Shown: positions 50,583 through 55,734 of the stretch, piece after piece
How the letters are laid out: the number at the start of each line of letters is the position of its first letter
How positions within the stretch are numbered: the first letter of the stretch is position 1
Source: Lutibacter oricola
GTDB lineage: Bacteria > Bacteroidota > Bacteroidia > Flavobacteriales > Flavobacteriaceae
Direction: 5' to 3'
Assembly (NCBI RefSeq): GCF_900106565.1
Contig: NZ_FNNJ01000013.1
Span: forward strand, 1-64,000
DNA: 64,000 nt
Made by a program: the position numbers and the translations under genes
The notes under the pieces: generated by a model
Told to the model about the DNA's origin: nothing
The model's input: the letters and a program-made list of their open reading frames with translations, nothing else
Database searches by the model: none

Positions 50583-51707
50583 TTAACATTTTTTTAACAC
50601 ACGCTGAACACGTTGAGAAATAGCAGTTAAAATTTCATAAGGAATGGTGTGTGATTTGCTTGCTAAATCTTCTATATGCTGCTGGTTTTTGTAAACAATA
50701 ACTTCATCACCTTCATTACAATTAATGTTTGTAACATTAACCATAATCATATCCATACAAACATTACCAATAATTGGAGCAATTTGGTTATTTATGTATA
50801 TATAGCCAATGCCATTACCAAGTTGTCTAGATATTCCATCGGCGTGGCCAATAGGTATTGTAGCAGTTTTTATGGTGGTATTTGCAGTAAACGCACGGTT
50901 GTAACCAACAGTATCGCCTTTGTTAATAGTATGAATTTGTGAAATAATAGACTTTACCTGAAGTACGTTTTTAAGATTTTCGGTTTGTTTTTTATCATTT
51001 CCAAATCCGTACAACCCAATTCCTAAGCGAACCATATCAAATTGAGCTTCGTTAGAATAATTTAATATTCCAGAAGTATTTAAAATATGTTTCATAGGTG
51101 TATAACCTAAAGTTTCAACTATTTTTTCTGAAATTTCATTAAACCTATTAATTTGTTTTAATGTAAACTTTTTTTCATTTAAATCTTCACTAGCTGCTAT
51201 ATGAGAGAATATTGAAGCAACTTTTATGGAGTTGCTGTTTAATAACGGAGCAATAGTATTTATGTTTTTAAATTCAAAACCTAGTCTGTTTAAACCTGTG
51301 TTAAATTTTAAATGAATTGGATAGTTTTTAAGGTTGTTATTTTTAGCAATACTAATAAACGAATTTAGAACCTTTTTAGAATATAAATTTGGTTCTAAAT
51401 TATGTTCAATTATTTTTTGAAAATTGGTTTGTTGCGGGTGTAAAACTAAAATTGGTGTTGTAATTCCAGCATTTCTTAACGCAATACCTTCATTTGTGTA
51501 AGCTACAGCAAAATAATCTACTTTTTTTGCTAAATGTTTACTTAATAATGCTGCACTTATACCGTATCCAAAAGCTTTTACTACTACTAATAATTTAGTA
51601 CTAGGTTTTAGTTTAGATTTAAAAAACTGAAGATTGCTATCTACCGCTTCTAAATCTATTTCAAGTTTTGTAACATGGTTATTCTCCATCATTTGTTGTG
51701 TCGTCAA
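50583..51707 (-). CDS. alr: Alanine racemase
   Basis: 374 residues from 51707; ATG codons at 51692 and 51689 would give slightly shorter versions. The PLP lysine lies in VVKAFGYG (near residue 43), the partner Tyr region is [10 protein letters not shown], and NVCMDMIMV is typical of the C-terminal domain. It makes D-alanine for peptidoglycan. Its 5' end overlaps the 3' end of tdk by 29 bp (11-14 bp if a shorter start is used), so the two genes are translationally linked. Confidence 0.94.
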
Positions 51708-52299
51708 CCTTTTCTTCTCTTTGCTTGTGCATTGCTTTATAATAAGCAGCTCTACTTAAAGGCTCATATTCTTGAGTTTCTCCTAATAAAACAAGATCAT
51801 CACCGTCAGCGGTTCTATGGCTATAATGTGCTAAGTTACCTGTTCTTGTACAAACTGCGTGTACTTTAGTAACATATTCTGCAGTTGCCATAAGAGCAGG
51901 CATTGGTCCAAACGGATTTCCTTTAAAATCCATATCTAAACCAGCAACTATTACTCTAATTCCTCGGTTTGCTAAATCGTTACAAACGCTCACAATTCCT
52001 TCATCAAAAAATTGAGCTTCATCAATTCCAACAACTTCTACATCTGTAGCTAAAATTCTAATATTTCCAGAAGAAGGTACTGGTGTACTTCTAATTTCAT
52101 TAGCGTCATGCGAAACAACTTTTTCATCGTCGTATCTAACATCAATAGCTGGTTTAAAAATTTCAACTTTTTGTTTTGCAAATTGAGCTCGCTTAAGTCT
52201 ACGTATAAGTTCTTCTGTTTTTCCAGAGAACATAGAGCCGCAAATTACTTCTATCCAGCCAAATTGTTCGGTATGATTTACTGTATTTTCAAGAAACAT
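51679..52299 (-). CDS. tdk: Thymidine kinase
   Basis: 206 residues of the type II (TK1-like) class: Walker [18 protein letters not shown] (about 21-37), [13 protein letters not shown], and a lasso region with GKPFG-like [11 protein letters not shown]. It phosphorylates thymidine to dTMP in salvage. The distal zinc-binding cysteines appear reduced (one Cys in HAVCTRTGN). It is upstream of and overlaps alr. Confidence 0.94.
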
Positions 52300-52424: not shown

Positions 52425-53309
52425 ATGCACAAAAAAATAGAATCTGATTTAAAAAGCTTAGCACACAGTATTTTACAAATGAAAAATAGCGATGATGTAG
52501 TAGCTTTACAAAAAAAATCTTTAGAAGTGTTCGAAAAGCTTTCGGTGTTAAAATTTGTAAATGAGCATGTTAGTTCAACTATAGAAGATACTGTGGTTGA
52601 AGAAAAAACTATTTCTAATGTTGAAAAAAGTTCTGTTGAAGAAAAGAAAGAAGATTTAGTGGTAGATGAAATTGTTGAAGTTGTAGAAAAAGAAGAAATT
52701 ATTGTTGAAACAAAACAAGAAAAACCAATTGAAGTTGAAGAAGAGGTTGTAGATGTTATTCCTGAAGAAAAACTAGAAGAAGTTGAGGAGGTTGTTGAAG
52801 AAAAACTAGAAGATGTTATTGAAGAAATAACTCCTGAGGTTAACCCACTAACAAAGGAGCAAATTAACGATATATTTAGCGTTGAAGATGTACTAGCTAA
52901 AGATGATGTAAATGAAGTGCCTTCTATTCAAATGACTTTGGAAGAGGAGTTAGAAAGTGCAATATCTAGTGATGTTGCTACTACAATGTTCGAAAAAGTT
53001 ACAAAAGAAGAACCCGTTATAGAAGAGAATGTTGAAGAGAAAATTGAAGAAAAAAAACGTTCTTTAAATGATGTTATTTATAAAGACAATATTCAAGTTG
53101 GTTTAAATGATAGAATTGCTTTTGTAAAGTATTTATTTGGTGGCAGTCAAGGAGATTTTAATAGAGTGTTATCTCAGTTAAACTCTTTTGATACAGAAAA
53201 AGAAGCAAAATCATTTTTAAATAAATTTGTAAAACCCGATTATAATTGGGATGATAAAGAAGAGTATGAGCAACGTTTAATTGCTTTAATTGAGCGTAAG
53301 TTTTTATAA
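52425..53309 (+). CDS. Conserved flavobacterial protein with Glu-rich linker
   Basis: 294 residues from ATG 52425 (MHKKIESDLKSLAHSILQM); an in-frame ATG at 52365 adds an unlikely basic extension. A short helical N-terminal domain (1-50) is followed by a Glu/Val-rich low-complexity linker (about 55-225) and a conserved-looking C-terminal domain (about 228-294: KRSLNDVIYKDNIQVGLNDRIAFVKYLFGG, DFNRVLSQLNSFDTEKEAK, NWDDKEEYEQRLI). No signal peptide or membrane segment. Function unknown. One base separates its stop from the next ATG. Confidence 0.75.
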   Translation: MHKKIESDLKSLAHSILQMKNSDDVVALQKKSLEVFEKLSVLKFVNEHVSSTIEDTVVEEKTISNVEKSSVEEKKEDLVVDEIVEVVEKEEIIVETKQEKPIEVEEEVVDVIPEEKLEEVEEVVEEKLEDVIEEITPEVNPLTKEQINDIFSVEDVLAKDDVNEVPSIQMTLEEELESAISSDVATTMFEKVTKEEPVIEENVEEKIEEKKRSLNDVIYKDNIQVGLNDRIAFVKYLFGGSQGDFNRVLSQLNSFDTEKEAKSFLNKFVKPDYNWDDKEEYEQRLIALIERKFL

Positions 53310-53310
53310 A

Positions 53311-53946
53311 ATGAATTATGAGTTGCTCGAAAAAGAGTTAAAAAAAAGACTTGAATACCCATATGTTTGGGGGAAAAGACAAAACAACTCATTAGATAAA
53401 GAAACAAATTTTATTTACAAAACATTTTTGTTTGAAGACCTTTTAAACAAAATTGAACAAGACTTTAGTGGTAAACAAAACTATATCAACATTAAAAACT
53501 ATGCCCTAAATAGGTGGTATAATTATTGGTCGGCAAAGGCAGTTGAAGAAATTTTTTGTGAACATAGTTTTGTAAAAGCACATTTAAATTCAAAAGATAA
53601 ATATGTAGATTTTTACATTCAAAAAATACCTTTCGATCACAAAACTACGGTGTTTCCAAAGGGATTTAAAAAATCGGTTCCGTATGCACATACGCATAAA
53701 TTAGAATTAATTAATTGGTTGTATGCAAATCAAAGTCAGCAACAACGCAAACATTTAAAAAATCGACTTTTTGTTGTTTTGGTTAATATGAATGATGAAA
53801 ACCAACATTGGAAACTGAAAGCAGAAATACTTTGGTTAAAAGAAATCGTTTCAGCTTATTTACGTACTTTTGAACCTCAAAAATTAACAAGCTTTACCTT
53901 TGAAAATTCAGCAATAAAGGCTGATATTATTTGGGCAGTTAAATAG
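53311..53946 (+). CDS. Possible PD-(D/E)xK nuclease paired with adenine methyltransferase
   Basis: 211 residues from ATG 53311; I recognise no named family. The central part reads KYVDFYIQKIPFDHKTTVFPKG: Asp100 followed by Asp109-His-Lys111 fits the D...(D/E)xK catalytic pattern, with candidate helix glutamates at 79-80 before it and a hydrophobic strand RLFVVLV (about 152-158) after it. It is followed 8 bp later by a D12-class adenine methyltransferase. This order and size suggest the restriction partner of a type II-like system. The nuclease call is inference from a short motif and context. Confidence 0.5.
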   Translation: MNYELLEKELKKRLEYPYVWGKRQNNSLDKETNFIYKTFLFEDLLNKIEQDFSGKQNYINIKNYALNRWYNYWSAKAVEEIFCEHSFVKAHLNSKDKYVDFYIQKIPFDHKTTVFPKGFKKSVPYAHTHKLELINWLYANQSQQQRKHLKNRLFVVLVNMNDENQHWKLKAEILWLKEIVSAYLRTFEPQKLTSFTFENSAIKADIIWAVK

Positions 53947-53954
53947 CAAACTTA

Positions 53955-54956
53955 GTGAATTACATAGGCTCTAAACATAAACTATCTTTATTTGTAAAAA
54001 ATACAATTTCAAAAGTTGTAAATAATAAGTTAGATAATTTAATTTTTTGCGATTTATTTGCTGGTACAGGTATTGTTGGTAGAACTTTTAAGCCATTAGT
54101 TAAACAAGTAATAGCTAATGATGTAGAGTATTATAGCTTTATTTTAAATAGAAACTATATAGGCAATTATGAAAAAATTACTTGCGAAAGTTTAATAGCT
54201 GAATTAAATGACTTAGAAGGTGTTGAAGGTTTTATTTATCAAAATTATTGCGAAGGAGGAAGAGAAGGAAGACTTTATTTTTCTTCAGAAAATGGAAAAA
54301 AAATAGATGCAATAAGATTGAAAATTGAAGAGTGGAAACAACTTAACACAATAAATGAGGATGGTTATTATTTTTTGTTAGCATCGTTAATTGAAAGTGC
54401 AGATAAAGTAGCCAACACGGCATCTGTATACGGAGCATTTTTAAAAAAACTTAAAAAAACTGCTCAAAAAACAATGGTTATAGTTCCTGCAGCTTTTGTA
54501 GAAACTAAAAATAGTCATCAAGTTTTTAATAAAGATGCTAATACCTTAATTAAAGAAATTAGTGGAGATGTGTTGTATTTAGATCCACCTTACAATGCTC
54601 GTCAATATGGGTCTAATTATCATTTGCTTACTACAATTGCAAAGTACGATACCTTTATTCCGAAGGGAAAAACAGGATTAAGAGATTATTATAAATCGCC
54701 GTATTGTAAAAAAAATGAAGTTAAAAATTCTTTCGAAGAGTTGATTAAAAACGCTAACTTTAAACACATTTTTTTAAGCTATAATAATGAAGGTTTAATG
54801 ACAGAAACTGAAGTTAAAAGTATTATGTCTAACTATGGAACTTATAGTTTAAAATCTAAAAAATATCAGCGTTTTAAGGCTGATAAAACAGAAAATAGAA
54901 ATCATAAGGCAACTGAAACAGTTGAATATTTACATATTTTAGAAAAACATGGATAA
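53955..54956 (+). CDS. D12-class DNA adenine N6-methyltransferase
   Basis: 333 residues with a GTG start (53955); the preceding gene's stop lies just upstream and no ATG is available. Family motifs in D12 order: NYIGSKHKL (2-10), SAM-binding motif I DLFAGTGIVG (33-42), VIANDVEYYS, and catalytic DPPY at 210-213. It transfers methyl to adenine N6 in DNA. The target sequence cannot be read from the protein. It follows the nuclease-like gene by 8 bp and overlaps the glycosyltransferase gene by 8 bp. Confidence 0.9.
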   Translation: MNYIGSKHKLSLFVKNTISKVVNNKLDNLIFCDLFAGTGIVGRTFKPLVKQVIANDVEYYSFILNRNYIGNYEKITCESLIAELNDLEGVEGFIYQNYCEGGREGRLYFSSENGKKIDAIRLKIEEWKQLNTINEDGYYFLLASLIESADKVANTASVYGAFLKKLKKTAQKTMVIVPAAFVETKNSHQVFNKDANTLIKEISGDVLYLDPPYNARQYGSNYHLLTTIAKYDTFIPKGKTGLRDYYKSPYCKKNEVKNSFEELIKNANFKHIFLSYNNEGLMTETEVKSIMSNYGTYSLKSKKYQRFKADKTENRNHKATETVEYLHILEKHG

Positions 54957-55692
54957 AAATACAGCTCAACAAAATTATATTTTCTGTATGAAGTGGGGAA
55001 CTTTATATGGCTCAGAGTACGTAAACAGATTATATTCTATGGTTAAAAATAATTTAACCTACGATTTTAAAATGGTTTGTTTTACTGATGATGAAAAAGG
55101 AATTATGGATGAGGTTGATTGCTACCCAATTCCGGAAATTAATTTAGACTCAAATCTTCCTGAACGAATGTGGAAAAAACTTACTACGTTGAAAGAAGAT
55201 TTATATGGTTTAGAAGGTAGAGCATTGTTTTTAGATTTAGATATTGTAATTGTAGATAATATAGATTGCTTTTTTGATGTTGAAGGAGAATTTAGAATTA
55301 TAAAAGATCATAGCTGGAGAAGTTGGAGAATTACAGGTAATTCATCAGTTTACAGGTTTGATATTGGTAAACACGGTTATGTTTTTGATGATTTTATTGC
55401 AAATTCGGATAAAGCTTTAAAGGAGCATAGAAATGAGCAAGAATATTTAACACATGCAATAAACAATAAAGGGAAGTTGCAGTATTGGCCAAAAGAGTGG
55501 TGCCCTAGTTTTAAATACGATTGTTCTTCTCGTTTTCCTTTAGCTTTTTGGAAAACACCTAAAATTACTGAAGGTTCAAAAATTATTATATTTCATGGCG
55601 AAATTAACCCACATAAAGCTGCAAAAGGTGGCTGGGGTAAATGGTATAGATATGTGCCTGCTGCTCCTTGGGTTGCAAAGTATTGGAAGTAA
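54949..55692 (+). CDS. Putative nucleotide-sugar glycosyltransferase
   Basis: 247 residues, cytosolic. A DxD-like LFLDLDIVIVDN motif is at about 94-104, preceded by MVCFTDDEKG and followed by GNSSVYRFDIGKH and HAINNKGKL, consistent with a GT-A (GT8-like) fold. The C-terminus has KIIIFHGEINPHKAA and repeated Trp (GGWGKWYRYVPAAPWVAKYW). Substrate unknown. The ATG lies inside the end of the methyltransferase gene (8-bp overlap), so the two are coupled although an obvious shared function is lacking. A terminator follows. Confidence 0.75.
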   Translation: MDKNTAQQNYIFCMKWGTLYGSEYVNRLYSMVKNNLTYDFKMVCFTDDEKGIMDEVDCYPIPEINLDSNLPERMWKKLTTLKEDLYGLEGRALFLDLDIVIVDNIDCFFDVEGEFRIIKDHSWRSWRITGNSSVYRFDIGKHGYVFDDFIANSDKALKEHRNEQEYLTHAINNKGKLQYWPKEWCPSFKYDCSSRFPLAFWKTPKITEGSKIIIFHGEINPHKAAKGGWGKWYRYVPAAPWVAKYWK

Positions 55693-55703
55693 AGTATAAG
55701 CAT

Positions 55704-55734
55704 AAAAAAAGCCGCTCATTTGAGTGGCTTTTTT
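55704..55734 (+). terminator. Intrinsic terminator of methyltransferase-glycosyltransferase unit
   Basis: AAAAAAAGCCGCTCA / TGAGTGGCTTTTTT with one G-T wobble and a 2-nt loop as drawn. It may act for both flanking genes. Confidence 0.87.

What the first reader, a model, noticed from the sequence alone, without database searches (positions are those of the whole stretch)
52425..55692. Four-gene packed locus resembling an undescribed restriction-modification system
Glu-rich conserved protein, PD-(D/E)xK-like protein, D12 adenine methyltransferase and glycosyltransferase lie on one strand with gaps of 1 and 8 bp and a final 8-bp overlap, ending at a terminator. A methyltransferase next to an unrecognised nuclease-like protein is the usual layout of a type II system. 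The extra Glu-rich and glycosyltransferase partners are not explained by any system I know.
Basis: partly seen in the sequence, partly recalled or inferred. Interest (0 to 1): 0.72.

Follow-up and report, generated by a model that had tools for sequence, protein, structure and literature searches.

The report
Two-gene CATG restriction-modification system in Lutibacter
Two of the four genes very probably form an ordinary-style bacterial DNA-cutting and DNA-protecting pair aimed at the sequence CATG, with a cutting enzyme from a family that the searched profile libraries do not hold; the other two genes are unrelated neighbours.

Summary
The gene layout is confirmed; the four-gene system is not. 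The window is Lutibacter-like (Flavobacteriaceae). The nuclease-like gene (NUC, 53311-53946) and the D12 adenine methyltransferase (MT, 53955-54956) travel as a pair: all 41 of 198 related genomes with NUC have MT on the same strand, within 1.2 kb. The Glu-rich gene is a wider neighbour of tdk (143 of 198). The glycosyltransferase occurs in 15 of 198, and in one genome directly follows the Glu-rich gene without NUC-MT. NUC relatives pair with other DNA methyltransferases, once by fusion. CATG is strongly depleted in the window's genome (388 seen, 1390 expected); of 16 palindromes only CATG is significantly lower in carriers, and the one well-sampled genome with MT but no NUC shows almost no depletion. 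NUC has no significant match in Pfam, NCBIfam, PADLOC or PHROGs; invariant E, D and DxK and a confident model suggest a divergent PD-(D/E)xK nuclease, but fold matches are weak. Best reading: a Type II R-M system cutting unmethylated CATG. REBASE was not available; nothing was tested at the bench.

The parts
53311..53946 (+). NUC: predicted restriction endonuclease, 211 aa; E79, D100, D109 and K111 invariant in the 17 aligned rows
   Evidence: beside, or fused with, DNA methyltransferases in relatives
53955..54956 (+). MT: D12-class N6-adenine DNA methyltransferase, 333 aa, GTG start, DPPY present; predicted to protect CATG
55705..55734 (+). terminator-like hairpin after the gene cluster (13 pairs, T run)
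52425..53309 (+). Glu-rich protein with conserved C-terminal region: neighbour of tdk, judged not part of the system
54949..55692 (+). glycosyltransferase-like protein: variable neighbour, judged not part of the system
51679..52299 (-). thymidine kinase (tdk), divergent flanking gene
   Evidence: PF00265 8.9e-48

Best explanation
NUC and MT are a two-gene Type II restriction-modification system with target CATG. MT methylates the adenine of CATG in the host genome; NUC cuts unmethylated CATG in incoming DNA. In Lutibacter the pair sits mostly at one chromosomal place, between the tdk/Glu-rich genes and the arsC/DinB-like genes (these last two names are by eye). Shown by computation: pairing, co-occurrence, an open NUC frame in 40 of 41 genomes, MTase class, CATG depletion that goes with NUC. 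Inferred: cutting activity, methylated base, cut position, PD-(D/E)xK chemistry.
For: Pairing: NUC in 41 of 198 relatives, MT (E<=1e-40) in 43 of 198 including all 41; in 41 of 41 NUC lies upstream of MT on the same strand within 1.2 kb. MT without NUC: 2 of 43 (G015, G017); NUC without MT: 0 of 41, as expected if NUC alone is toxic. NUC relatives lie beside other DNA methyltransferases: N6_N4 type (PF01555 over cut-off: L041, L043, L092, L095 and seven loci), a second D12 type (L042, L216), and a 728-aa D12-NUC fusion (L215). Specificity: CATG O/E 0.28 in 638 kb of G000 (388/1390), lowest of 16 palindromes and of all tetramers, all 10 NCATGN classes 0.15-0.42. Eleven carrier groups 0.15-0.68, median 0.49; 12 non-carrier groups median 0.79; one-sided Mann-Whitney p=6e-4; the other 15 palindromes give p 0.09 or more. 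G017 (MT, no NUC) 0.90 (197/219) against the Lutibacter carrier pool 444/888, p=4e-11. A 65% identical MT in G068 sits beside an ICEA nuclease gene (PF05315, 1.5e-66). Passages seen say iceA1 is 52% identical to NlaIII (PMC2749054) and that an 'ulcer associated' MTase is an ortholog of CATG-specific hpyIM (PMC4687069); 5 of 12 phage records with an MT match carry that name. PMC4687349 (abstract and passages): site avoidance is caused by orthodox Type II systems in about half of cases, and hardly by other types. No ICEA in G000; its only other D12 match is weaker, 6.9e-25.
Confidence: 0.85

Rival explanations
1. A four-gene system in which the Glu-rich protein and the glycosyltransferase act with the pair (for example DNA glycosylation or regulation).
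For: Tight packing and the 8-bp MT/GT overlap; the Glu-rich gene precedes NUC in 26 of the 28 Lutibacter loci L044-L071.
Against: Glu-rich C-terminal region in 143 of 198 genomes, 102 of them without NUC; in 0 of the 9 non-Lutibacter carriers is it near NUC, and in carriers G019 and G030 it lies elsewhere. GT in 13 of 34 Lutibacter genomes with MT. In G040 GT directly follows the Glu-rich gene with no NUC-MT.
Confidence: 0.03
2. A Type II R-M system, but with a recognition site other than CATG; the CATG depletion has another cause.
For: CATG is also low in non-carriers G060 and G028; the MTase link to CATG rests on record names and on a 65% relative's neighbour.
Against: CATG is the lowest palindrome in 7 of 11 carrier groups and among the lowest three in all 11; it is the only one of 16 palindromes whose depletion goes with carriage at p<0.05; depletion is nearly absent in G017.
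Confidence: 0.08
3. MT is a regulatory methyltransferase and NUC a decayed or non-nuclease partner.
For: MT is found without NUC in G015 and G017; the pair is in 32 of 38 same-genus genomes.
Against: NUC is an unbroken frame in 40 of 41 genomes, E79, D100, D109 and K111 are invariant across distant relatives, and it is never without MT. Depletion follows NUC rather than MT alone, in one well-sampled genome.
Confidence: 0.05

Closest known systems
NlaIII / HpyI (IceA1-HpyIM) CATG R-M systems
   Same: MT is of the same D12 type as a 65% identical MT in G068 that is paired with an ICEA-domain nuclease; predicted target CATG
   Different: NUC has no ICEA match and shows PD-(D/E)xK-like conserved residues; that NlaIII is an HNH enzyme is recalled. 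No NlaIII or HpyIM sequence was at hand for direct comparison
FatI (/CATG) and CviAII (CATG) R-M systems
   Same: predicted target CATG; CviAII is an m6A R-M pair A251R/A252R of chlorovirus PBCV-1 (PMC7248222 passages); FatI cut position /CATG (PMC6449724 passage)
   Different: no sequence of either was available. That FatI comes from Flavobacterium aquatile is recalled. NUC could turn out to be a FatI relative
UpaP162 of Ureaplasma parvum
   Same: CATG-cutting enzyme without recognised nuclease domain (PMC6191088 abstract and passages)
   Different: its partner was predicted there as an m5C-type MTase; sequences not compared
EcoO109I, Ecl18kI and other PD-(D/E)xK nucleases
   Different: Z far below a reliable level; no meaningful sequence match in PDB

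Membership tests
Orthodox Type II R-M system | separate REase and DNA MTase genes kept together | tested here: met
   41 of 41 NUC genomes; that NUC is the REase is inferred
Orthodox Type II R-M system | MTase of a DNA-MTase class with catalytic motif | tested here: met
   PF02086 1.5e-48; DPPY in the translation
Orthodox Type II R-M system | host genome avoids the site when the REase is present | tested here: met
   CATG O/E 0.28 in G000; carriers below non-carriers, with exceptions such as G060
Orthodox Type II R-M system | REase cuts the site that the MTase protects | not testable with these tools
   needs enzyme assay and methylome
PD-(D/E)xK nuclease superfamily | conserved E, D and (D/E)xK in the expected helix and strands (pattern recalled) | tested here: met
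   E79 in helix 58-84, D100 just before strand 101-103, D109xK111 in strand 106-114; invariant in 17 rows
PD-(D/E)xK nuclease superfamily | superfamily fold | tested here: inconclusive
NlaIII/IceA nuclease family | ICEA domain (PF05315) in the nuclease | tested here: not met
   no ICEA match for NUC at E<=1; none in G000 at E<=0.001
NlaIII/HpyIM methyltransferase type | close D12 relative paired with an ICEA nuclease | tested here: met
   L082: 65% MT beside ICEA 1.5e-66; same top PADLOC model PDLC03257
FatI / CviAII nuclease family | sequence homology of the nuclease | not testable with these tools
   no REBASE; no sequence of either at hand

The most novel reading that the evidence does not exclude
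NUC founds an undescribed, very divergent PD-(D/E)xK restriction-endonuclease family that has joined at least four kinds of DNA methyltransferase, once by gene fusion; on the CATG-type MTase it is an exchange partner of the unrelated ICEA/NlaIII nuclease, so that two nuclease families came to guard the same site with closely related methyltransferases.
Probability: 0.45. Interest if true: 0.5.

Novelty: new member of a known kind. Interest (0 to 1): 0.4.

Why it matters
If true, it adds a restriction-enzyme family for which Pfam, NCBIfam, PADLOC-DB 2.0.0 and PHROGs gave no significant match, with a predicted target that is easy to test (NlaIII digestion of carrier DNA). The genomes offer a natural test of how nuclease loss relaxes site avoidance (G017 against its relatives). 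For Lutibacter it also says which DNA methylation might help transformation.

Tried and rejected
Four-gene system: rejected by co-occurrence.

ICEA/NlaIII identity of NUC: rejected.

Sequence search of PDB: NUC alone gave two weak T-antigen rows, its profile one eIF2B row at 0.55, MT nothing at E<=1. NUC in phages: no match; in plasmids: 1 of 72,556 records, Priestia. PADLOC also had no match for NUC relatives L042, L041 and L092.

Viral-contig scans with single sequences and with the long-form alignment gave no new locus apart from re-cut copies of loci already held (L198, L199). Alignment scans gave four loci and one more, L200, which has no open frame over the match under table 11 or 15.

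The first structure model (A2, with the long-form row) had pLDDT 69.5 and weak matches; the second, without that row, had 85.3.

Paper searches: Lutibacter R-M, CATG/FatI/CviAII/NlaIII, iceA/hpyIM, CATG avoidance, Flavobacteria + CATG + SMRT, FatI/F. aquatile, CviAII. No listed title describes this gene pair; only titles and abstract starts were seen, except for passages of 9 papers. The Lutibacter methylation paper (PMC13340088) has no 'CATG' in its main text. Passages of PMC6791906, PMC9516812 and PMC4081073 were seen and add nothing decisive.

Full report
OBSERVATION. The four + strand frames are at the stated places, with gaps of 1 and 8 bp and an 8-bp overlap, followed by a terminator-like hairpin at 55705-55734. 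The window is part of contig C48 of a 4.12-Mb genome, G000.

WHAT STAYS TOGETHER. The same 198 related genomes were searched with each product. NUC (53311-53946) is in 41 of 198 and MT (53955-54956, E<=1e-40) in 43 of 198, including all 41. The 41 are 32 of 38 same-genus genomes (own included) and 9 others. In all 41 NUC precedes MT on the same strand. This was read from stretches for the window, 28 same-genus loci and 9 others and G029, and from match coordinates for G003 and G025. The gap is 1193 bp in L033, 561 bp in L036, at most 209 bp in the other loci measured, and about 180 bp or less in the two judged from coordinates. Two genomes have MT without NUC: in G017 the order is Glu-rich gene, MT, GT; in G015 the Glu-rich gene is followed by MT. 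Both assemblies are incomplete (88% and 62%), but the loci are continuous across the place of NUC. No genome has NUC without MT.

WHAT DOES NOT. The C-terminal region of the Glu-rich protein is in 143 of 198 genomes, 102 of them without NUC. It lies beside divergent tdk in the loci in which both are present. In the 9 non-Lutibacter carriers it is 25 kb or more from NUC or on another contig. GT (E<=1e-30) is in 15 of 198, 13 of them Lutibacter. In G040 the Glu-rich gene is followed at once by GT, with no NUC-MT. In G028, a Lutibacter without the pair, the Glu-rich gene is followed by a DUF4254 gene. The simplest reading is that NUC-MT came into, or was lost from, a variable spot after the Glu-rich gene.

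NUC IS A NUCLEASE BY COMPANY. Pfam, NCBIfam, PADLOC and PHROGs give no significant match. Longer relatives (about 370 aa) exist in three Lutibacter genomes: L041 and L043 overlap a roughly 530-aa PF01555 methyltransferase, and L042 overlaps a different D12 methyltransferase, 25% identical to MT. In viral contigs, L092 and L095 overlap PF01555 genes upstream, L093 overlaps a D12 gene downstream, and L094 has none next to it. In 395 genomes drawn from the phylum, NUC relatives occur in 20, at 21 places including the window. Of these 21, 19 have a methyltransferase relative beside or fused to them: 13 with a Pfam DNA-methyltransferase match over the cut-off, L224 just under it, and L217-L220 and L222 only by BLAST to the L041 methyltransferase (E 1e-26 or better; Pfam gave nothing for L217 and L218 at 0.01, the other three were not scanned). 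L214 has none in its flank and L223 is a fragment beside a D12 fragment. One of the 19, L222, has a broken NUC. L215 is a natural 728-aa fusion, D12 methyltransferase then NUC. Swapping and fusion with methyltransferases is what restriction endonucleases do (established knowledge, recalled).

TARGET. MT and a 65% identical MT in G068 share the same best PADLOC model; the G068 copy starts 47 bp after an ICEA gene (PF05315, 1.5e-66). ICEA genes occur in 2 of 198 relatives; the other, G140, has no MT-like gene in its 3.7-kb locus. [quoted passage not shown] others are named after LlaI and FokI at 29-36%. A passage of PMC4687069 calls an 'ulcer associated' gene an ortholog of CATG-specific hpyIM, and PMC2749054 gives iceA1 52% identity to NlaIII. 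The MTase tree of 48 rows leaves the ICEA-linked copy in an unresolved fork with two NUC-linked, one phage NUC-linked and mobile copies, outside the main group that holds the window (88/91 support). So exchange of nuclease is suggested, not shown.

SITE AVOIDANCE. In 638 kb of the window's genome CATG is seen 388 times against 1390 expected from trimers, the lowest of 16 palindromes and of all tetramers. All ten flank classes are depleted (0.15-0.42), so the avoided site is CATG and not a longer one. Eleven carrier groups range from 0.15 to 0.68; CATG ranks first in 7, second in 3, third in 1. Twelve non-carrier groups have median 0.79, with G060 at 0.01 and G028 at 0.60. As a control, the same test on all 16 palindromes gives p=0.0006 for CATG and 0.09 or more for each of the others. 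Outside Lutibacter: 8 carriers 0.15-0.59, 10 non-carriers 0.67-1.08 apart from G060, one-sided p=0.0015. G017, with MT but no NUC, has 0.90; the pool of 27 Lutibacter carrier loci has 0.50, p=4e-11; that pool includes G021, whose NUC is broken. G015, the second NUC-less genome, gives 13/25 in 7.6 kb and does not help. PMC4687349 (abstract and passages) finds avoidance for orthodox Type II systems in about half of 1774 cases, more for long-resident ones, hardly for other types (it names a GATC and a CAGAG exception), and traces after loss, which would fit G028.

MECHANISM. Most likely MT protects host CATG as m6A and NUC, as a divalent-metal PD-(D/E)xK enzyme, cuts unmodified CATG. Four of the nine non-Lutibacter pairs and the viral L093 overlap by 4 bp, consistent with coupled translation. 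In 28 of 31 Lutibacter loci (the mobile second copy L081 and the duplicate L031 left out) MT starts with GTG or TTG; whether this limits MT output is open.

VERDICT. A two-gene Type II R-M system inside an unrelated gene neighbourhood: ordinary in kind, with a nuclease family that the searched libraries lack. Whether REBASE or the FatI/CviAII literature already holds the family could not be tested.

Noticed in passing
window 54949-55692; L031 7647-8390: The glycosyltransferase-like protein is 97% identical to that of L. citreus while neighbouring NUC is 68% and MT 77%: unusual conservation or recent transfer.
   Followed up: no
L215 1501-3684 (-): Natural fusion of a D12 methyltransferase with a long-form NUC relative in one 728-aa frame.
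   Followed up: partly
L073 4890-5612: Unannotated NUC relative (35%) on a 1.08-Mb Priestia megaterium plasmid record, no methyltransferase noticed nearby, beside frames that look like a dCMP deaminase and a nucleotide kinase (labels by eye).
   Followed up: partly
L182-L183 (G060): A genome without NUC or MT matches in which CATG (1/85), GATC (0.09) and CTAG (0.15) are all nearly absent from 40 kb; it has one D12 gene; unexplained.
   Followed up: partly
L032 and L082 (G068): One genome carries both a NUC-MT pair and an ICEA-MT pair.
   Followed up: partly
window 53955; 44 loci: MT starts: 25 GTG, 6 TTG, 13 ATG among 44 loci (L031 and L047 are the same locus); among Lutibacter at this place only L056-L058 have ATG.
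   Followed up: no
L200 3001-3531: A viral contig encodes a stretch 39% like L094's NUC but no open frame over it under table 11 or 15.
   Followed up: partly
window 52425-53309: Glu-rich protein with a variable acidic middle and a conserved C-terminal region found in 143 of 198 related genomes, no significant library match; function unknown.
   Followed up: partly
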